Below are positions 4,949-45,195 of a DNA stretch of 64,000 bases, piece after piece. Each line of letters starts with the position of its first letter. Position 1 is the stretch's first letter. Origin of the DNA: an uncultured Clostridia bacterium (lineage in GTDB: Bacteria; Bacillota; Clostridia; Christensenellales; Borkfalkiaceae); the NCBI GenBank assembly GCA_944336975.1, contig CALVLH010000001.1, positions 1 through 64,000 of the forward strand. The letters are read 5' to 3'. Under the pieces are notes generated by a model. That model was not told the DNA's origin. It searched no databases and was given only the letters and a program-made list of their open reading frames with translations. Made by a program: the position numbers and the translations under genes.

Positions 4949-4964
4949 ATCATCAATCGAATAT

Positions 4965-5073
4965 TCTTTGGGGCGGAGTGAAATTCTCCACCGGCAGTAA
5001 AGTCTGCGAAGAGCGAAAGCTCCCGAACGGGTGCAATTCCCGTACCGACGGTATAGTCCGGATGGAAAAAGAG
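4965..5073 (+). promoter_or_regulatory. FMN riboswitch (RFN element)
   Basis: The aptamer shows the hallmark RFN blocks in order: GGGGCGGAGTGAAATTC, CCACCGGCAGTAAAG, GAGCGAAAGCTC, CCCGAACGGGTGCAATTCCCGTACCGACGG (written here in pieces: the CCGAACGGGTG and CCGACGG segments) and AGTCCGGATGG. FMN binding is expected to favour the intrinsic terminator just downstream and so switch ribU off when flavin is plentiful. Sequence identity to the RFN consensus is visible by eye; the switching mechanism is inferred from the adjacent terminator. Confidence 0.95.
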
Positions 5074-5089
5074 TGAAAAGTCGCATTTT

Positions 5090-5173: not shown

Positions 5174-5938
5174 ATGGAAAAACAATCATCGGGCGCCGCG
5201 AGCGCCGAGGCAAAGCTCTGCGTGAACGCCGAAGAGGCGGAAAACGCAAAGACGGAAGCGGAACAGGCGACAACGGCCGCGGAAACTGCGCCCGTCGCCG
5301 AAGAGGACAAAAAGGCGGCGCGCAAGAAAAAAGCGATCTTCACGGGGAAATACATCGCAAAAGTCGCGCTTTTCTCCGCGCTGGCGGGGATCCTGTACAT
5401 CATCCCCGGCATCCCGCTCGGGATCTTCGCGTCGTGGCTGGAACTGCGTTTCTTCGACATTCCCACGATCATCGGCACGTTCGCGCTCGGACCTATTGCG
5501 GGTACCATCATCGTCGCCGTGCGTATCGTATTGAAGATCATCACCGTGGGCACGACGACGGGATACGTCGGCGAGCTGGGCGATCTGCTCTGCGGACTTG
5601 CGTTGGTCTTGCCCGTCGGGCTTATCTACCGCAAGAAAAAATCCTTCAAATGGGCGATCATCTCCCTGATCGTCGGCACGGTCGCGACCGTCATCGTCGC
5701 CGTCATCACCAACCGCTATATGCTCATCCCGTTCTATGCGAATCTGTCCTATATTGGCGGCATGGAAGGACTGGTCGGAATGCTCTCCTCGCTCTACAGC
5801 GGGATCACGGTGGATAACTTCTATGCGTACTACCTGGGACTTTCCGTCGTGCCCTTCAACCTGCTCCGCTGTGCGATCGCGATCGGCGTTACCTTGCCCA
5901 TTTATAAGCGGATCTCCAATTTGTTAAAGAGAATGTAA
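5174..5938 (+). CDS. ribU: Riboflavin ECF transporter substrate-binding (S) component RibU
   Basis: Membrane S-component that captures riboflavin and works with a shared EcfA/EcfT energising module (not in this window). The 254-aa protein has a soluble Ala/Glu/Lys-rich N-terminus of about 55 residues and then about six hydrophobic segments (from near residue 58 to the end), with the RibU-like GILYIIPGIPLGIF and TTTGYVGELGDLLCG stretches. The FMN riboswitch directly upstream supports the substrate assignment. SD AAAGGAG precedes the ATG. The charged N-terminal extension is longer than in the textbook RibU proteins and its role is unknown. Confidence 0.93.
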   Translation: MEKQSSGAASAEAKLCVNAEEAENAKTEAEQATTAAETAPVAEEDKKAARKKKAIFTGKYIAKVALFSALAGILYIIPGIPLGIFASWLELRFFDIPTIIGTFALGPIAGTIIVAVRIVLKIITVGTTTGYVGELGDLLCGLALVLPVGLIYRKKKSFKWAIISLIVGTVATVIVAVITNRYMLIPFYANLSYIGGMEGLVGMLSSLYSGITVDNFYAYYLGLSVVPFNLLRCAIAIGVTLPIYKRISNLLKRM

Positions 5939-5946
5939 AAGGATTG

Positions 5947-5975
5947 TTGATTTTTTCAGCCGTATGCGGTATAAT
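5947..5975 (+). promoter_or_regulatory. Promoter of tsaE, predicted to give leaderless mRNA
   Basis: TTGATT at 5947-5952, 17-bp spacer, TATAAT at 5970-5975. Only 8 nt separate the -10 box from the tsaE ATG at 5984, and no Shine-Dalgarno is present, so the transcript should begin at or within a base or two of the start codon. Confidence 0.8.
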
Positions 5976-5983
5976 ATCCGCGT

Positions 5984-6385
5984 ATGGCTGAATTTTTTTC
6001 ACATTCGGAAGAAGAGACGATCGAGTTCGCAAAGAAATACGCCGCCACGCTCGTCCCCGGAGACGTCGTGCTCCTTGAAGGGGAGATGGGTGCGGGCAAG
6101 ACGGCGTTCGCCAAGGGCGTCGCAAAGGGGCTGGGCATCTCGGAGGAGGTCACGAGCCCCACTTACGCGTACATGAACAGTTATTCGGATAAGCTCTATC
6201 ATTACGACTGCTACCGCATCCGATCGGAGATGCAGGCGGAAAATTTAGGGCTTGCCGATTATTTCGACGCGGGCGGGATCTGTCTCGTCGAGTGGAGCGA
6301 GAACATCGCGGGGCTTATCCCCCCGTATGCAAAAAAAGTCGTCCTGGAAAAGATCGGAGAGGACGAAAGGAAGATACTCTATTGA
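5984..6385 (+). CDS. tsaE: TsaE, ATPase for tRNA t6A37 synthesis
   Basis: P-loop ATPase of the complex that makes threonylcarbamoyladenosine at position 37 of ANN-decoding tRNAs. The 133-aa length and Walker A GEMGAGKT (33-40) followed by SPTYAYMNSY and YHYDCYR are family signatures. The start is set by homology (SHSEEETIEFAKKYA is the usual N-terminal region) and by the promoter: the -10 box ends 8 nt upstream and no SD exists. Its stop codon overlaps the TTG start of tsaB, giving the common tsaE-tsaB-rimI order; tsaD is not in this window. Confidence 0.95.
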   Translation: MAEFFSHSEEETIEFAKKYAATLVPGDVVLLEGEMGAGKTAFAKGVAKGLGISEEVTSPTYAYMNSYSDKLYHYDCYRIRSEMQAENLGLADYFDAGGICLVEWSENIAGLIPPYAKKVVLEKIGEDERKILY

Positions 6386-6993
6386 AATTTCTGGCAATCG
6401 ATACCAGCGGAAAACACCTTACGGTGATCGCTTATCACGACAAAGCATATACGACGGCTCTGCCCGACTGTGCGCTCGAACATTCGGTGCGGCTGATGGA
6501 CGAATTGGACGCGGCGCTCTCCCGCGCGGGAATGAGCGCGGCGGATTGCGACTTTTTCGCCGTCGTCACCGGCCCCGGCTCGTTTACGGGCATCCGCATC
6601 GGCATCGCCACGGTCAAAGGGCTTTGCCTCGCGTTGGAAAAACCCGCGCTTTCCGTCACGTCTTTCGACTGTATCGCATACGATAAAGCGGAGTTTCCTC
6701 TTTTGTGCCTCGTGGACGCGGGTCACGGCTATGTGTATGCCTGCGGATACGGGAAAGGGGGAGAGACCGCCCTTGAACCGCGCTATCTTTCGGGCGCGGA
6801 AGCGGAGAAGACCGCGCGCGAAGGGGGATATGCGCTCGCCGCGTCCGAGGGCGTGTGCGCGGACTGCCCGCGCGCCGACGTCGCGAACGGGCTTCTGAAC
6901 GCCGTCCTGCGCAAAGCGGGCGAGGCGCGTCCCGCGCAGGAGCTGACCGCGCTGTATGTGCGCAAATCCTCGGCGGAGGAAAACAGGACATGA
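6382..6993 (+). CDS. tsaB: TsaB, t6A synthesis scaffold protein
   Basis: Inactive ASKHA-fold partner of TsaD in t6A biosynthesis. The conserved start KFLAIDTSG and the GPGSFTGIRIGIATVKGL block identify it. I place the start at TTG 6382, which overlaps the tsaE stop (TTGA), because the family begins exactly there and GAAAGGAAG lies about 10 nt upstream. An ATG further upstream would add about 30 unrelated residues. The result is a 203-aa protein, slightly short for the family. Its TGA overlaps the rimI ATG (ATGA), so the three genes are translationally coupled. Confidence 0.93.
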   Translation: MKFLAIDTSGKHLTVIAYHDKAYTTALPDCALEHSVRLMDELDAALSRAGMSAADCDFFAVVTGPGSFTGIRIGIATVKGLCLALEKPALSVTSFDCIAYDKAEFPLLCLVDAGHGYVYACGYGKGGETALEPRYLSGAEAEKTAREGGYALAASEGVCADCPRADVANGLLNAVLRKAGEARPAQELTALYVRKSSAEENRT

Positions 6994-7427
6994 AGATACG
7001 TCCCTGGACTTTTGAAGATCTGACCACGATCGCGGCGATGGAAAAGGACTGCTTCCCGCAGGCGCCGTGGAGCGTGCAGATGCTCGCGGATTCCTTCCTT
7101 TCGGGGCGTTTCGTCGGCGTGCTCACCGAGGAAGAGGGCGTGATCACCGCATACGGCGGGATGTCCGTGCTTCTCGACGAGGCGGAGATCGAACTCATCG
7201 CGACGGCGGAAGAGTACCGTCGCTGCGGCCGCGGTCAGAAGATCCTGTCCGCGTTGCTGGACGAAGCGAAAAAGCGCGGCGTGGAGAAGGTGTTTCTGGA
7301 AGTGCGCGTCTCCAACGCGCCCGCGCAGAGGTTGTATCTCAGAAACGGATTTATCGGGCAGTATGCGCGCTCGCGCTACTATCCCGACGGCGAAGACGCG
7401 ATCGTCATGAAAAAGACGATCGGCTGA
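6990..7427 (+). CDS. rimI: RimI-type N-alpha-acetyltransferase (GNAT)
   Basis: GNAT-fold acetyltransferase of the RimI family, which acetylates the N-terminus of ribosomal protein S18 in model bacteria. The 145-aa protein has the acetyl-CoA loop RRCGRGQKIL and the EVRVSNAPAQRLYLRNGF block typical of RimI. The start ATG at 6990 overlaps the tsaB stop by 4 nt; a longer in-frame reading starting at 6855 would overlap tsaB by 46 codons and is rejected. The tsaE-tsaB-rimI order is conserved across many bacteria. Confidence 0.93.
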   Translation: MKIRPWTFEDLTTIAAMEKDCFPQAPWSVQMLADSFLSGRFVGVLTEEEGVITAYGGMSVLLDEAEIELIATAEEYRRCGRGQKILSALLDEAKKRGVEKVFLEVRVSNAPAQRLYLRNGFIGQYARSRYYPDGEDAIVMKKTIG

Positions 7428-7463
7428 CGGCGTTCCCGCAGGGGAACGGCGCAAGGAGGGCGT

Positions 7464-12293: not shown

Positions 12294-13223
12294 ATGCTGG
12301 ATGCAAAGATCAGGCGGTATCTGGACAATACCTGTAAATCGCTCGGCGGCAAGCGGGTGCTGGTGCTGGGCGCGACGGGGAGCATCGGGGGCGCGGCGGC
12401 GCTGGAATTGCTCTATTGCGGCTGTTCGCTCGTCTGCGCCTATCGGAGCGAGAGAAAACGGCACGAACTGGAAGGGCGCGTCGCGGCGTTTTGCGGAGAG
12501 GAGAAACTCTCTTCCGACGTGCGATACGCCCGCGTCGACTTGTCCGATTTCGCCTGTGTCCGCGCCTTTGCGGAAGAATTTCCGTCGCGATACGGGCAGG
12601 TGGACTGCGTGCTCAACTGCGCGGGCGTATATCATCTGCCTTCCGAAAAAAACGCAGACGGGCAGGACATTCATGTCGCAACGAATGTCCTGAGCGCGGT
12701 CATCCTCTGCGATCTGTTTTCCAAAAACGGCGCGGTGAAGGAAAAATGGCTGAACACGGGCAGCATCAGTTGCCTGTTTTCCGATCGGAACGCGGGGAAC
12801 GTCATCGGCAGGAAAGAGAAGAACAAGACGCGCCTTTACGCGGCGACCAAACGCCTGCTCGCGGAATATACCTGCGAGAGCGGGCGCTCGGCGGGATTCC
12901 GCACCGCGCTGGCGCATCCCGGGATCTCGGCGACGTCGCTGTTTGCGGAAGAAAAGGGCGGCTTTTCCCGCTCCTTCCAAAAATGGATCTTTCCGCTGAT
13001 GAAGCGCGTGTTCCCTTCCCCCGAACAGGCGGCGCTCAGCCTGCTGTATGCGCTTTCGCACGATTCGGCGGAAGGCTGCTGGACGGGCCCTTCTATCTTC
13101 GGGATCTGGGGGAAACCCAAGACGACGCGTCTTTCCGCGGGCGTGACGAAGGGCGCGAAAGAGGACGTGGAGAAATTGCGCGCCGCCGTTTCCGATTATC
13201 TGCGTGAAGAAAAGGACGGCTGA
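12294..13223 (+). CDS. Short-chain dehydrogenase/reductase (SDR)
   Basis: NAD(P)-dependent oxidoreductase of the SDR superfamily, 309 aa from the chosen start. The Rossmann loop is GATGSIGG near residues 24-31. The catalytic set is Ser in NTGSIS and the YxxxK motif in YAATK. The shape (long C-terminus after the catalytic lysine) resembles retinol-dehydrogenase/WWOX-like SDRs, but no substrate can be assigned. Start choice: ATG 12294 has GGGAG about 12 nt upstream; the alternative ATG 12258 sits directly against the icd hairpin without an SD. Confidence 0.82.
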   Translation: MLDAKIRRYLDNTCKSLGGKRVLVLGATGSIGGAAALELLYCGCSLVCAYRSERKRHELEGRVAAFCGEEKLSSDVRYARVDLSDFACVRAFAEEFPSRYGQVDCVLNCAGVYHLPSEKNADGQDIHVATNVLSAVILCDLFSKNGAVKEKWLNTGSISCLFSDRNAGNVIGRKEKNKTRLYAATKRLLAEYTCESGRSAGFRTALAHPGISATSLFAEEKGGFSRSFQKWIFPLMKRVFPSPEQAALSLLYALSHDSAEGCWTGPSIFGIWGKPKTTRLSAGVTKGAKEDVEKLRAAVSDYLREEKDG

Positions 13224-13235
13224 GCAAAGAGCGCG

Positions 13236-13268
13236 AAAAAAGGCTTCCCGATGGGGAAGCCTTTTTTC
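13236..13268 (+). terminator. Bidirectional intrinsic terminator
   Basis: AAAAAAGGCTTCCC and GGGAAGCCTTTTTT form a stem with A and T tracts on opposite sides, so it can end both the SDR transcript and the convergent zinc-peptidase transcript. Confidence 0.88.
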
Positions 13269-13318
13269 GTGAGAAGCGTTGCGCACGGAGCGCGCCGTTT
13301 TTTCCGCGTTCCGAGCCG

Positions 13319-14023
13319 TCAGTCGTGCCGCAGGAAGGAAAGGAAAAAGAGCGCGAACCGCAGGAAATAGAAGAGGGAAATGAGCAGGGACGCGACATAG
13401 GTGAGCGCCGCCGCCGAAAGCACTTTGGAAGCGCCGGGGACTTCTTCCGCGGTCAGGATGCCGTCTTCGAGGAGCATCTTTTTCGCGCGTTTGCTCGCGT
13501 TGAGCTCCACGGGGAGCGTAACGAGCGCGAACAGGGTGGAAAGTCCGAACAGAGCGATCCCCGCATAGACGCACCATGCGCCGTAGGGGACGCTGATGAG
13601 AAAAACATCGAGCAGGATGCCGATGAGGACGAGCGGGATGGAGAGCGCCGATCCGATGTTGGTCAGAGGGACGAGCATCGTGCGCACTTTATAGGGGAAA
13701 TACCCCTCTTTTTTTTGCATGACGTGACCGACCTCGTGCGCGGCGACCGCGACGGCGGCGACGGACGCGCTGCCGAAGGTACTCATCGAGAGGTTGACCT
13801 GTTTTTTGGTGGGGTGATAGTGGTCGGTCAGTTTTCCGTTCACCCGCTCGACGCGGATGTCGTACACGCCGCGGTTGCGCATCAGGCGGACTGCCGTGTC
13901 GTAACCCGTCATGCACGCACGGTTGGGAACGCGGTCGAACGCGGTATATGCGGAATTGACCTTAGCGCTTGCCCATCCCGCAAAGATCAGCAAGGGGATG
14001 AGGAGCAATAGAGACAAATACAT
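13319..14023 (-). CDS. YugP-type membrane zinc metallopeptidase
   Basis: Integral membrane protein of the neutral zinc metallopeptidase 2 family (B. subtilis YugP type), 234 aa. The metal motif HEVGH sits after a first membrane segment (residues about 2-20) and the stretch GKLTDHYHP, and further hydrophobic segments cover about 120-185 and 205-232. The active site is expected on the cytoplasmic side, but substrates are unknown for the family. It has its own promoter and converges on the SDR gene over a shared terminator. Confidence 0.88.
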   Translation of the reverse strand: MYLSLLLLIPLLIFAGWASAKVNSAYTAFDRVPNRACMTGYDTAVRLMRNRGVYDIRVERVNGKLTDHYHPTKKQVNLSMSTFGSASVAAVAVAAHEVGHVMQKKEGYFPYKVRTMLVPLTNIGSALSIPLVLIGILLDVFLISVPYGAWCVYAGIALFGLSTLFALVTLPVELNASKRAKKMLLEDGILTAEEVPGASKVLSAAALTYVASLLISLFYFLRFALFFLSFLRHD

Positions 14024-14040
14024 ACCGATACCTCTCTATT

Positions 14041-14068
14041 ATTGTACCACGCCGTGGGCGTTTTACAA
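14041..14068 (-). promoter_or_regulatory. Promoter of the YugP-type peptidase (minus strand)
   Basis: On the minus strand: TTGTAA (14063-14068), 16-bp spacer, TACAAT (14041-14046), followed by AGAGAGGT as ribosome binding site before the ATG at 14023. Confidence 0.7.
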
Positions 14069-14145
14069 CACATTTCCGCATTTTTTCACAAAAACGCCCG
14101 CGATTGTCCGCGCGGAGCGTCTACATGAGGGAAGCAGGCGCATTG

Positions 14146-14985
14146 TCAGGGTGTTCGCGTCCGCTTTTTGTATTCGCTTGCCGTAAAGGAGAAGTATTTG
14201 CGGTATTCCGCGGAAAAATGCTCCACGCACGAATAGCCCACCTCTTCGGAGACCTGCGTCACGGACATCCCGCGTTGCAGCAGCACGTTGGCGGCGGACA
14301 TCCGCGCTTGCGTTTTCTTTTGCGAAAAAGTCGCGCCGTATCGCTCTTTGAGCACGCGCTGCGTCTGGCGCGGGCTCAGCCCGATGCGGCGGGAAAGCGA
14401 TTGCAGCGTGATCTCGCGGTATCCGTACAAAAACGCCTCTTCGATGCGCAGATACAGCTCGGAAGGGGAAGGCGGTTCTTCCCGCTCGGAAGGGGCGGCG
14501 CCCGCCTCTTCCATGCGCACGAACAGGCTGAGCAGGCGCATGATCGCGCCCGCCGCCGCGCTTCGGTATCCCGGGAGCCGCCGCGTCAGTTCCTCGGCGA
14601 TCGTCTCTGCGAGCGCGAGAAATTCCGCGTCCGCCTTTCCGAAAAAGAAGGGGCGGGACAAAAAGCGTTTTGCCGCCGCGCTTTCCCCGCGCAAGCGCTC
14701 CGCGGTCGCGTACAGGCACAGTTCGCGCACGGGAGCGTGGGGGAGCGCGCTCTGCTCGTGTTCCGCGCTTCCCGCGGTGAGATAGACGTTCCCCGCCGAG
14801 AGGGCGTATTCCGCCTGCTCCGTGCGCACGCGCCCCTCGCCCGAGAACACGACGTGCAGTTCGAAGCTGTCCGACGAATGGCGGTGCATGGGAATCGCCG
14901 CGCTGATGTATTCGTCCGATACGCGTACGGGACGGATGGTAAGTCCTTCCCATACAAAGGACTCGTTCTGAAACTCATAGATCAT
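14146..14985 (-). CDS. AraC-family transcriptional regulator
   Basis: A 279-aa regulator: an N-terminal cupin-like sensing domain (the PMHRHSSDSFELHVVFSGEG region near residues 33-52) and a C-terminal pair of helix-turn-helix motifs (about 185-275; LSRRIGLSPRQTQRVLKERYG, given here in part, and VSEEVGYSCVEHF). It is divergent from the GH29 fucosidase and probably activates it in response to a sugar (inference). I chose ATG 14985 over the upstream TTG 15012 because the promoter -10 box ends 6 nt before this ATG, so transcripts cannot include the TTG. No SD is present. Confidence 0.88.
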   Translation of the reverse strand: MIYEFQNESFVWEGLTIRPVRVSDEYISAAIPMHRHSSDSFELHVVFSGEGRVRTEQAEYALSAGNVYLTAGSAEHEQSALPHAPVRELCLYATAERLRGESAAAKRFLSRPFFFGKADAEFLALAETIAEELTRRLPGYRSAAAGAIMRLLSLFVRMEEAGAAPSEREEPPSPSELYLRIEEAFLYGYREITLQSLSRRIGLSPRQTQRVLKERYGATFSQKKTQARMSAANVLLQRGMSVTQVSEEVGYSCVEHFSAEYRKYFSFTASEYKKRTRTP

Positions 14986-20487: not shown

Positions 20488-20516
20488 TTGAAATTTACGA
20501 GGGAATGTGTTAAAAT
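20488..20516 (+). promoter_or_regulatory. Promoter of the NifU-like/GGGtGRT operon
   Basis: TTGAAA at 20488-20493, 17-bp spacer, TAAAAT at 20511-20516. The leader of about 45 nt ends in GGAGGAG before the ATG at 20569. Confidence 0.8.
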
Positions 20517-20568
20517 GAATGCGTATGGTTCCGAATAAGGAATATCAAACGTTTATGGAGGAGATAAG

Positions 20569-21270
20569 ATGCAATATTCACATGAAGTAGAACAGATGGT
20601 GTGCGTTGCAAAGGGTCCCAAGCATGATCCCTCTCCCATTCCCGAAGAGGGGAAGTGGGTATGCGCGAAGCAGATCACGGACATCAACGGCCTCACGCAC
20701 GGCGTCGGCTGGTGCGCTCCCGAGCAGGGCGCCTGCAAGCTCACGCTCAACGTCAAGGGCGGCGTCATCCAGGAAGCGCTCGTCGAGACGATCGGTTGCT
20801 CGGGCATGACGCATTCCGCGGCGATGGCGGCGGAGATCCTGCCTCATAAGACCATCCTCGAAGCGCTCAACACCGACCTCGTCTGCGACGCGATCAACAC
20901 CGCGATGAGAGAGCTGTTCCTGCAGATCGTCTACGGGCGTACGCAGTCCGCGTTCTCCGACGACGGGCTTCCCATCGGCGCGGGACTCGAAGACCTCGGC
21001 AAGGGACTTCGTTCCCAGGTCGGTACGATGTACGGCACGGCTTTGAAGGGCGTGAGATACCTCGAAATGGCGGAAGGCTACGTCACCCGCATCGCGCTGG
21101 ACAAGGACAGCCAGGTCATCGGATATGAATTCGTCTCCCTCGGCAAGATGACCGACTTCATCAAGAAGGGCATGGAACCCAACGATGCGTGGAAGAAGGC
21201 GATGGGGCACTACGGCAGATTCACGGAAGAACAGGGCGCGGTGAAATACATCGACCCTCGCAAGGAATAA
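20569..21270 (+). CDS. NifU/IscU-like iron-sulfur scaffold-related protein
   Basis: A 233-aa protein whose first half resembles the IscU/NifU N-terminal scaffold: GACKLTLNVKGG and the TIGCSGMTHSA block align with two of the three cluster-ligand regions, giving C56 and C77. The third ligand near the IscU C-terminus has no counterpart; the remaining Cys are C12, C32, C49 and C106. The last 110 residues are a separate extension without Cys. It is encoded 12 nt before a GGGtGRT-family protein, with which it forms a conserved but uncharacterised gene pair in anaerobes (from memory of annotation). Arg codons lean to AGA like the ribosomal genes, suggesting strong expression. Confidence 0.8.
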   Translation: MQYSHEVEQMVCVAKGPKHDPSPIPEEGKWVCAKQITDINGLTHGVGWCAPEQGACKLTLNVKGGVIQEALVETIGCSGMTHSAAMAAEILPHKTILEALNTDLVCDAINTAMRELFLQIVYGRTQSAFSDDGLPIGAGLEDLGKGLRSQVGTMYGTALKGVRYLEMAEGYVTRIALDKDSQVIGYEFVSLGKMTDFIKKGMEPNDAWKKAMGHYGRFTEEQGAVKYIDPRKE

Positions 21271-21282
21271 GGAGGTAGCGGT

Positions 21283-22284
21283 ATGTCTTTGTTTGAAGGT
21301 TATGAAAGAAGAGTAGATAAGATCAACGCCGTTCTCAAAGAGTACGGGATCTCCTCCATCGAAGAGTGTAAAGATATTACGCTCGCAAAGGGCGTCGATT
21401 GCGATAAGATCGTGCGCGGCACGCAGCCCATCTGCTTCGAGAACGCGGTCTGGGCATATACGGTAGGCGCGGCGATCGCGATCAAGAAGGGCTGCAAGAA
21501 GGCGGCTGACGCGGCGGCGGCGATCGGGATCGGTCTGCAGGCGTTCTGCATTCCCGGTTCGGTCGCGGAAAACAGAAAGGTCGGTCTCGGTCACGGCAAT
21601 CTCGGCGAGATGCTGCTTTCCGAATCCACCGACTGCTTCTGCTTCCTCGCGGGTCACGAATCCTTCGCGGCGGCGGAAGGCGCGATCTCCATCGCGATGA
21701 ACGCGAACAAGGTCAGAAAGAAGCCCCTCCGCGTCATCCTCAACGGTCTCGGAAAGGATGCGGCGATGATCATTTCCCGCATCAACGGGTTCACCTACTG
21801 CGAAACGGTGTTCGATCCCTATACCGAAACGGTCACCGTCACCGAAGAGATCGCTTATTCGGACGGCCCCCGCGCGAAGGTCAAGTGCTACGGCGCGGAC
21901 AACGTTCCCGAAGGCGTCGCGATCATGAAGCTCGAAAAGGTCGGCGTTTCCATCACGGGCAACTCCACCAACCCCACGAGATTCCAGCACCCCGTTGCGG
22001 GCACCTATAAAAAGTGGTGCGTCGAGAACGGCGTCAAGTATTTCTCGGTCGCTTCCGGCGGCGGTACGGGCAGAACGCTTCACCCCGACAACATGGCGGC
22101 AGGTCCCGCTTCCTATGGCATGACGGATACGATGGGACGTATGCACTCGGACGCGCAGTTCGCAGGTTCTTCCTCCGTTCCCGCGCACGTCGAGATGATG
22201 GGGCTCATCGGCATGGGCAACAACCCCATGGTCGGCGCAACGGTCGCGGTCGCGGTCGCGGTGCAGGAAGGCATGAGCAAATAA
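21283..22284 (+). CDS. GGGtGRT family protein of unknown function
   Basis: A 333-aa protein named after its signature GGGTGRT at residues 259-265, followed by LHPDNMAAG. Other features: a Gly/Ala-rich hydrophobic stretch (about 57-90), numerous Cys (C29, C40, C51, C71, C89, C118, C120 and later ones), GHGNLGEM, GHESFAAAEGAISIAMNA and a C-terminal MMGLIGMGNNPMVGA run. No enzymatic fold can be assigned with confidence; the repeated Gly-rich turns suggest nucleotide or cofactor binding (inference). It is co-transcribed with the NifU-like protein, has SD AAGGAGG, and 6 of its 11 Arg codons are AGA. A terminator ends the two-gene operon. Confidence 0.82.
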   Translation: MSLFEGYERRVDKINAVLKEYGISSIEECKDITLAKGVDCDKIVRGTQPICFENAVWAYTVGAAIAIKKGCKKAADAAAAIGIGLQAFCIPGSVAENRKVGLGHGNLGEMLLSESTDCFCFLAGHESFAAAEGAISIAMNANKVRKKPLRVILNGLGKDAAMIISRINGFTYCETVFDPYTETVTVTEEIAYSDGPRAKVKCYGADNVPEGVAIMKLEKVGVSITGNSTNPTRFQHPVAGTYKKWCVENGVKYFSVASGGGTGRTLHPDNMAAGPASYGMTDTMGRMHSDAQFAGSSSVPAHVEMMGLIGMGNNPMVGATVAVAVAVQEGMSK

Positions 22285-22296
22285 CTTAAAACGATC

Positions 22297-22329
22297 AAAA
22301 CGCCCTGCGGCAATGCCGCAGGGCGTTTT
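22297..22329 (+). terminator. Terminator of the NifU-like/GGGtGRT operon
   Basis: A long stem AAAACGCCCTGCGGC with its complement around AAT, ending in TTTT. The 5' A run would allow some function in the other direction too, for the convergent YoaK gene. The following 22330-22438 holds a 9-G run and nothing else that I can assign. Confidence 0.88.
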
Positions 22330-22438
22330 GTGTCTTTTCGGGATAAGCGCTTCTGGAAAAATCGGACCTTTCCGTCTGCCATGGAGAACGAAGGTTTCAT
22401 GCTGTCGGAGTCGCGGGGGGGGGATCGCTTCGGGGAAA

Positions 22439-44930: not shown

Positions 44931-45195
44931 CTGTGAGGGCTTTTTTTGTTGCGGCGCACCGAAGCGGAAACGCGACAGGTGACTCCGACAAAGCTACCTT
45001 ATGGCACACGCACCGATCTGTTTAGTGCTGCTGTATCCCTACCCTGACACGGTTCGCAGGGATGCGTTGCATAAGACCTTGTTATCAACATTCCTTACCG
45101 CGTGCGGCCTTCCATACGTCGCACCGAGAAAAGCGTTCGGCTCTGCTATAGCGGATTGCAGATACAGGGCACCGCTAACTCCCCGCCTATCACAG
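44931..45195 (-). ncRNA. ffs: Signal recognition particle RNA (6S/scRNA-type, long bacterial form)
   Basis: Read on the minus strand. The Alu domain is recognisable by TAGCGGTGCCCTGTA and CAATCCGCTATAGCAG. The universal Ffh-binding hairpin follows as AACCGTGTCAGG, then the asymmetric loop GGGATACAGCAGCACTAA, then GCGTGTGCCATAAGGTAGC. The first six bases CTGTGA pair with the last six TCACAG, fixing a length of 265 nt, the size of Firmicutes SRP RNA. It delivers membrane and secreted proteins co-translationally with Ffh. It has its own promoter and terminator. One mild oddity: the usual GTCCGGAAGGAAG of the apical loop reads GGTAGGGATACAG. Confidence 0.93.

What the first reader, a model, noticed from the sequence alone, without database searches (positions are those of the whole stretch)
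20488..22329. NifU-like scaffold paired with a GGGtGRT protein: a conserved two-gene system of unknown function
Seen: a self-contained operon (consensus promoter, two genes 12 nt apart, strong terminator). The first protein keeps only two of the three IscU-type Cys regions (C56, C77) and carries a 110-aa Cys-free extension. The second is a Gly-rich, Cys-rich protein with GGGTGRT at 259-265. Both use AGA for Arg at a rate like the ribosomal genes (6 of 11 in the second gene), unlike most neighbours, so high expression is likely. Known: the pair recurs in anaerobe annotation without an assigned role. Inference: it could build or store an unusual metal cluster, or the GGGtGRT protein could be a cluster-dependent enzyme whose dedicated scaffold is the first gene.
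Basis: partly seen in the sequence, partly recalled or inferred. Interest (0 to 1): 0.72.

Follow-up and report, generated by a model that had tools for sequence, protein, structure and literature searches.

The report
Candidate iron-dependent replacement for enolase
Two neighbouring genes of unknown function look like a second, unrelated way to carry out one of the last steps of sugar breakdown (the enolase step), which could explain how many gut bacteria live without the usual enzyme.

Summary
In detail: promoter-like site, two genes 12 nt apart, terminator. The genes form an obligate pair: in 299 genomes of the phylum the full-length NifU-like gene occurs in exactly the 19 genomes with GGGtGRT, adjacent in all 20 copies.

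The evidence leads to glycolysis, not metal storage. The window's genome has no detectable enolase. In its class, 49 of 52 good-quality enolase-less genomes carry the pair; 3 of 278 have neither. All 25 enolase-less pair genomes tested keep phosphoglycerate mutase. In one family the pair fills the enolase slot after gpmI. At 8 loci it lies under fluoride riboswitches. Published data show the pair falling and enolase rising when iron is scarce.

I propose a non-homologous, iron-sulfur, fluoride-resistant enolase. Gene 1 would hold the cluster by three cysteines invariant in 145 of 145 rows; GGGtGRT, with no invariant cysteine, would bind 2-phosphoglycerate. The pathway step is strongly supported; cluster and catalysis are inferred; no structure could be predicted. 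It would answer a question open in print since 2010.

The parts
20488..20516 (+). sigma-70-like promoter site, TG-extended
   Evidence: 10 of 12 positions; 2 such sites found in the region, 1.1 expected
20557..20563 (+). ribosome-binding site GGAGGAG of gene 1
   Evidence: read from the sequence
20569..21270 (+). gene 1: NifU/IscU-like protein with long C-terminal extension, invariant C49, C77, C106; proposed cluster-bearing subunit of an iron-sulfur enolase
21271..21282 (+). 12-nt spacer with the ribosome-binding site of gene 2
21283..22284 (+). gene 2: GGGtGRT protein (PF14057); proposed substrate-binding and catalytic subunit
22296..22330 (+). intrinsic terminator hairpin, 16 pairs

Best explanation
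The pair is a two-subunit enolase (2-phosphoglycerate to phosphoenolpyruvate and water) unrelated to the known Mg2+-dependent enolase. Gene 1, derived from an IscU-type fold, holds an iron-sulfur cluster through C49, C77 and C106, probably [4Fe-4S] with one open iron that takes the C3 hydroxyl of 2-phosphoglycerate. GGGtGRT supplies binding and acid-base residues. The chemistry would resemble that of iron-sulfur hydro-lyases such as bacterial L-serine dehydratase: loss of an alpha proton and a beta hydroxyl. Without the Mg2+ site it would escape fluoride inhibition, so some lineages put it under fluoride riboswitches. Because it needs iron, cells that also own classical enolase shift to that enzyme when iron is short. 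In the window's family the classical enolase is not found. Shown here: obligate pairing, complementary distribution, operon slot, fluoride-riboswitch loci, Cys pattern. From papers: opposite iron regulation. Inferred: catalysis, cluster type, division of labour, behaviour with fluoride and oxygen.
For: (1) Enolase (TIGR01060) absent from the window's genome and from G142, G222, G246 (100% complete) and G207 (96%), all pair carriers; found in all 14 controls. (2) In the class, good-quality genomes: pair+eno- 49, pair+eno+ 93, pair-eno- 3, pair-eno+ 133, Fisher p 2e-13; 23 families with pair+eno-, 8 families holding both pair+eno- and pair-eno+, two clean swaps. All 5 genomes of the window's family in the sample are pair+eno-. 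(3) Phosphoglycerate mutase (PF06415) in 25 of 25 enolase-less pair genomes (6 of 14 controls). (4) gap-pgk-tpi-gpmI-gene1-gene2-pyk in L150 and L151, the same without pyk in L155, L157, L158; gpmI directly upstream in 6 of 6 pair genomes of family f36; eno follows gpmI in L220. (5) Fluoride riboswitch in front of gene 1 or heading its cluster at 8 loci, with CrcB or CLC genes. (6) Opposite iron response of pair and enolase in two phyla. (7) Three invariant Cys in gene 1, none in gene 2. (8) Nothing else recurs in the empty eno slot but three genes that I recognise as secG, rnr, smpB.
Against: No activity, cluster or structure was measured or predicted. 93 of 142 good pair genomes of the class also have enolase, and so do all six f36 genomes with the operon. 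Three good genomes of the class, and four of the phylum sample (G042, G083, G110, G205), have neither. Extract of B. proteoclasticus B316 showed only very low enolase activity and the legend calls it absent (PMC2914790, passages); whether B316 has the pair was not tested, and handling in air is not stated. The B. thetaiotaomicron eno entry has P 0.144; the C. pasteurianum values are 2-D gel spots. In chicken caecum phosphoglycerate mutase was low too. The window's own pair has no fluoride riboswitch. Fisher values ignore relatedness.
Confidence: 0.8

Rival explanations
1. The pair makes enolase dispensable indirectly: it serves another step around 3-phosphoglycerate, PEP or serine (a bypass), and its place in the glycolytic operon reflects that step.
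For: The same complementary distribution and operon would follow. Chicken-caecum Bacteroidetes with low phosphoglycerate mutase and enolase expressed serine-branch enzymes strongly (PMC11204068, passages).
Against: Phosphoglycerate mutase, which makes 2-phosphoglycerate, is kept in 25 of 25 enolase-less pair genomes; pyruvate kinase follows the pair in L150 and L151; fluoride riboswitches fit enolase best (PMC11139923, passages).
Confidence: 0.1
2. One reading: gene 1 is a dedicated scaffold that builds or stores a metal cluster, with GGGtGRT as client or store.
For: IscU-like sequence of gene 1; pair falls in low iron; the window's genome has no other NifU_N-type scaffold.
Against: No invariant Cys in GGGtGRT. 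Does not explain enolase loss, the glycolytic slot or fluoride riboswitches. The genome has a SUFBD-type protein for cluster assembly.
Confidence: 0.04
3. A fluoride-detoxification pair (for example a fluoride or organofluorine-handling protein) without a role in glycolysis.
For: Fluoride riboswitches at 8 loci with CrcB or CLC genes.
Against: Most loci scanned, the window included, have no fluoride element near; the own genome's fluoride riboswitch lies on another contig. Does not explain enolase loss or the glycolytic operon.
Confidence: 0.04

Closest known systems
Enolase (phosphopyruvate hydratase, TIGR01060, Mg2+-dependent)
   Same: Proposed reaction; slot after gpmI; membership of fluoride-riboswitch operons (enolase part from PMC11139923, passages); replaces it in 49 of 52 good enolase-less genomes of the class.
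   Different: No sequence similarity found; two subunits; proposed iron-sulfur instead of Mg2+; opposite iron regulation.
IscU/NifU/SufU scaffolds
   Same: Gene 1 residues about 37-112 align with them (best E 5.5e-5 with a profile); C77 matches the second Cys motif.
   Different: C49 lies four residues before the first scaffold Cys in the alignment; no HC motif; about 110 further residues; always paired with GGGtGRT; present beside canonical scaffolds in other genomes.
[4Fe-4S] hydro-lyases (aconitase, fumarase class I, L-serine dehydratase; recalled)
   Same: Three conserved Cys would leave one iron open for substrate; alpha-proton and beta-hydroxyl loss as in L-serine dehydratase.
   Different: No sequence match to any such family; cluster on an IscU-like subunit.
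GGGtGRT family (PF14057)
   Same: Gene 2 is an ordinary member (E 1e-194).
   Different: None; the family has no function in the papers found.

Membership tests
GGGtGRT (PF14057) | score over Pfam's gathering cut-off | tested here: met
   646.3 bits against 27
IscU/NifU/SufU scaffold (PF01592) | score over Pfam's gathering cut-off | tested here: not met
   gene 1 16.6 bits against 22; far below TIGR cut-offs; all 26 relatives match weakly, best E 7.2e-6
IscU/NifU/SufU scaffold (PF01592) | three cluster-ligating Cys of IscU (C37, C63, C106; recalled numbering) | tested here: inconclusive
   C77 aligns with C63; C49 and C106 are invariant but their match to C37 and C106 of IscU needs a structure (alignments)
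Enolase family (TIGR01060) | sequence match to enolase | tested here: not met
   no enolase match for either protein; own genome has no match to TIGR01060
Enolase as a function (EC 4.2.1.11) | conversion of 2-phosphoglycerate to PEP | not testable with these tools
   only indirect support: distribution, operon, regulation
[4Fe-4S] hydro-lyase | three conserved Cys for a site-open cluster | tested here: met
   C49, C77, C106 in 145 of 145 rows; their closeness in space was not tested
[4Fe-4S] hydro-lyase | a bound [4Fe-4S] cluster | not testable with these tools
   needs purified protein
Fluoride-riboswitch regulon | RF01734 in front of the pair or its cluster, in the window | tested here: not met
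   none in the window
Fluoride-riboswitch regulon | RF01734 in front of the pair or its cluster, in relatives | tested here: met
   8 loci (L101, L102, L162, L163, L164, L214, L215, L217) of 109 sources scanned, some cut short

The most novel reading that the evidence does not exclude
A central glycolytic enzyme taken to be a single family has a widespread, non-homologous, oxygen-sensitive iron-sulfur replacement that resists fluoride. It arose by turning an iron-sulfur scaffold fold into the cluster-bearing subunit of a hydro-lyase, and it carries the flux to PEP in many gut anaerobes that have lost classical enolase.
Probability: 0.7. Interest if true: 0.95.

Novelty: categorically new. Interest (0 to 1): 0.93.

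Why it matters
Papers from 2010 to 2024 report bacteria that ferment sugar without an enolase gene and leave open how (PMC2914790, PMC3558957, PMC11026938, PMC11187502, PMC11257099; passages). If right, this fills the gap, gives a function to a poorly characterised protein reported as highly expressed by gut bacteria, ties glycolysis to iron supply and perhaps oxygen in the gut, adds a fluoride-resistant enzyme to the fluoride regulon, and corrects the misleading annotation 'nitrogen-fixing protein NifU'. One anaerobic enzyme assay would test it.

Tried and rejected
Soluble guanylyl cyclase as a relative of GGGtGRT (E 0.0071 with the single sequence, 0.43 with the profile): taken as chance. 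SepZ (E 0.041; 4 of 21 relatives): below cut-off, rejected. A MYND zinc-finger chain (E 0.0035) and ARPC1B among the gene 1 profile hits: taken as chance. Recurring neighbours as a clue: apart from the glycolytic and fluoride contexts the recurrences are small and lineage-bound (at most 9 loci). Another gene in the empty enolase slot: in 25 enolase-less genomes the families seen behind gpmI in more than 3 loci are three that I recognise by eye as secG (6), rnr (5) and smpB (4).

Literature (held library only; no preprints, few subscription papers, so a published answer could exist). GGGtGRT: 9 papers, passages seen in five. BT0173/BT0174: 2 papers. PF14057: 8 papers; from titles these are Plasmodium gene numbers. 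Fluoride riboswitch with NifU: 0. Fluoride-riboswitch gene lists: 130 papers, 25 listed, passages seen in three. Alternative or missing enolase phrases: 6 papers, 4 listed, passages seen in two. Enolase with Butyrivibrio proteoclasticus: 11, passages seen in six. Novel or iron-sulfur enolase phrases: 26, 20 listed, listing only. Enolase with GGGtGRT: 3, passages seen in two, no link made; PMC12014591 not opened. Enolase with NifU and 'missing' from 2023: 3, listing only. Only section 11 of PMC5395762 was read as a section; all other papers were seen as passages.

Rows left out before counts. The 145-row alignment took loci with nearly full genes and holds eight places twice. The R1 scan took 100 sources; short or cut loci such as L006, L022, L024, L041, L049, L074 were left out. 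Rfam itself was run on the window and 25 loci only; R1, built from six riboswitches, covered the rest and could miss divergent ones. Its three hits at E 0.28-0.77 (L150, L104, L162 plus strand) were not counted. The phosphoglycerate-mutase test used 25 of the 60 enolase-less pair genomes of the class, picked for completeness; the genome budget then ended. Three GGGtGRT fragments (G309, G334 C97, G335) and the weaker part-matches were counted as present but not checked for the partner gene.

Full report
What is there. The window holds a compact unit: promoter-like site 20488-20516, gene 1 at 20569-21270, 12 nt, gene 2 at 21283-22284, terminator 22296-22330. Gene 2 is PF14057, GGGtGRT (E 1e-194); gene 1 is a sub-threshold NifU_N relative with an extension of about 110 residues. 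Codon use is like that of ribosomal genes (AGA 6 of 11 and 3 of 7; ribosomal 93 of 161; eight upstream ORFs 16 of 190).

An obligate pair. In 299 genomes of the phylum GGGtGRT occurs in 19 genomes, 20 copies. A profile of gene 1 scores 405 bits or more at 20 places in the same 19 genomes and 34 bits or less elsewhere, mostly in IscU/SufU-sized frames. Pairs are also adjacent in records of Vibrio, Persicobacter, Parabacteroides (a small annotated gene between), Collinsella and Bacteroides. Gene 2 is 61-80% identical to the window's in 20 diverse relatives, yet its occurrence is patchy.

Cysteines. In 145 aligned pairs C49, C77 and C106 of gene 1 are always Cys; all ten Cys of the window's GGGtGRT protein vary, while many His, Asp, Glu, Arg, Lys and Asn are invariant. 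Among solved structures the gene 1 profile finds IscU/NifU/SufU (best E 5.5e-5; two unrelated chains taken as chance) and gene 2 nothing credible. So if a Cys-bound cluster exists, gene 1 carries it.

First lead, fluoride. Rfam finds the fluoride riboswitch in front of gene 1 in Vibrio sp. THAF191d (L101), G186 (L162) and G125 (L164). It stands at the head of a same-strand cluster with the pair in Persicobacter (L102: riboswitch, CLC gene, 466 nt, pair) and G089 (L163: riboswitch, TauE-family permease, pair). L162-L164 carry two CrcB-type genes and a DUF190-type gene just after the pair (Pfam for L162; L163 and L164 cluster with them). A further class search (82 genomes, 11 with GGGtGRT) gave nine fetched loci, of which three have it: L214 and L215 in front of gene 1, and L217 as riboswitch-CrcB-DUF190-MFS-gene1-gene2; L219 has CrcB next door without a detected riboswitch. 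A model of six of these riboswitches run over 100 sources found no other credible one. In a quick tree of 44 pairs the fluoride-linked rows form a clade of six (SH-aLRT 100) plus L101 and L102 elsewhere: 3 changes against 7.5 in shuffles. In the phylum 102 of 299 genomes have a fluoride riboswitch over the cut-off; 3 of 20 pair copies next to one looks far above chance placement, though I did not test this formally. The window's pair has none; its genome has one on another contig, in front of an ORF that looks by eye like a cation/proton antiporter. The review PMC11139923 (passages) names enolase as fluoride-sensitive and often under fluoride riboswitches.

Second lead, the glycolytic operon. 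Neighbour clustering showed GAPDH, PGK and phosphoglycerate mutase before the pair in three genomes. Read closely, L150 and L151 have gap-pgk-tpi-gpmI-gene1-gene2-pyk, and L155, L157 and L158 the same up to gene 2. All 6 pair genomes of that family in the phylum sample have gpmI directly upstream (L150 names confirmed by NCBIfam). In L220, a genome with enolase, eno directly follows gpmI. The pair thus stands where enolase stands. These six genomes still carry eno elsewhere. Enolase lies close to the pair in L226 and L250 and in the fluoride region L214.

The test. Classical enolase (TIGR01060) is found in 14 of 14 control genomes and 282 of 299 genomes of the phylum, but not in the window's genome (93.7% complete), nor in G142, G222, G246 (100%), G207 (96%), G109 (81%) or G125 (83%), all pair carriers. 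Of 267 good genomes there 9 lack enolase: 5 have the pair, 4 do not (p 6e-5). In the window's class (341 genomes) the counts are pair+eno- 60, pair+eno+ 105, pair-eno- 14, pair-eno+ 162; in the 278 of good quality 49, 93, 3, 133 (odds ratio 23, p 2e-13). So 49 of 52 enolase-less good genomes have the pair. Relatedness inflates such p values, but enolase-less pair carriers occur in 23 families, eight families hold both pair+eno- and pair-eno+ genomes, and two show clean swaps (f124: 2 against 6; f8: 2 against 3). In f124 five of the six enolase carriers belong to the same genus as the two pair carriers. All 25 enolase-less pair genomes tested have phosphoglycerate mutase, the maker of 2-phosphoglycerate; in 15 of the 25 it stands with tpi and pgk. 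Little recurs behind it, so no rival candidate sits in the slot.

Regulation in print. In Clostridium pasteurianum GGGtGRT is 7.1-fold (early) and 2.2-fold (late) higher with iron and the NifU protein 1.6- to 3.7-fold, while two enolase spots are 4.1- and 4.8-fold (early) and 4.0- and 1.8-fold (late) higher without iron (PMC5395762, section 11). In Bacteroides thetaiotaomicron the pair falls 11- to 12.8-fold in low iron, and the three-gene entry with eno rises 2.0- to 7.7-fold, P 0.144 (PMC10434189, passages). In chicken caecum Bacteroidetes express GGGtGRT and NifU, while enolase and phosphoglycerate mutase are low or absent (PMC11204068, passages). GGGtGRT is also reported from the rumen for Pseudobutyrivibrio ruminis and Eubacterium ruminantium (PMC7035244, passages).

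The open question. Butyrivibrio proteoclasticus was reported without enolase in 2010, with only very low activity in extract (PMC2914790). Oscillibacter valericigenes was suspected of an alternative enolase-like enzyme (PMC3558957). Many Butyrivibrio (PMC6912079), two Pseudobutyrivibrio (PMC7523725) and several Endomicrobia (PMC11257099) lack it, and reviews of 2023 and 2024 still call it unclear (PMC11026938, PMC11187502). All were seen as passages. I found no paper in the held library that links this to the pair (searches in Tried and rejected).

Mechanism. I read the pair as an iron-sulfur enolase. Loss of the alpha proton and beta hydroxyl from 2-phosphoglycerate resembles the reaction of iron-sulfur L-serine dehydratases (recalled). 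An iron Lewis acid in place of the Mg2+ ions of enolase would explain iron-dependent expression, the fluoride riboswitches, and weak activity in extracts if those met air (handling not stated). The pathway step rests on several independent lines; cluster, catalysis and fluoride insensitivity are inference.

Against it. Most pair carriers in the class also keep enolase; some genomes have neither; the low activity in B316 is unexplained unless the enzyme is oxygen-labile or B316 lacks the pair; the iron data come from two species and are partly weak; the window's own pair shows no fluoride element. None of these contradicts the reading, but only an assay can settle it.

Noticed in passing
G000 whole genome; L118, L167: The window's genome has no NifU_N-type scaffold (12 of 14 controls do) and a single SUFBD-core protein (frame of 313 aa), which suggests a minimal cluster-assembly system.
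   Followed up: partly
G000 contig C2 113165-113237; L210 6166-6238 -: A fluoride riboswitch of the window's genome stands at the start of an ORF that looks like a cation/proton antiporter.
   Followed up: partly
L214 1292-1349, 6325-6382, 8910-8969: Three fluoride riboswitches within 8 kb: before a MutS_V-domain protein, before the pair, and before or within another ORF; an enolase gene lies at 13097-14368.
   Followed up: partly
L217 1804-3012; L163 10252-10962: An MFS transporter and a TauE-family permease lie inside fluoride-riboswitch clusters with the pair; both could be further fluoride-response genes.
   Followed up: no
L166 (G207), about 5735-7430: A second, divergent copy of the pair on a long branch (1.09) in a genome that also has a normal copy and no enolase; its motif reads GGGIGRT.
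   Followed up: partly
G374, G410, G462, G532, G632 against G647, G664 (one genus of small genomes, 0.8-1.2 Mb): Within one genus, five genomes have enolase and no pair, two have the pair and no enolase: a good place to study the swap.
   Followed up: no
window 4960-5077 + and 44940-45195 -: FMN riboswitch and bacterial large SRP RNA, both well above the family cut-offs.
   Followed up: no
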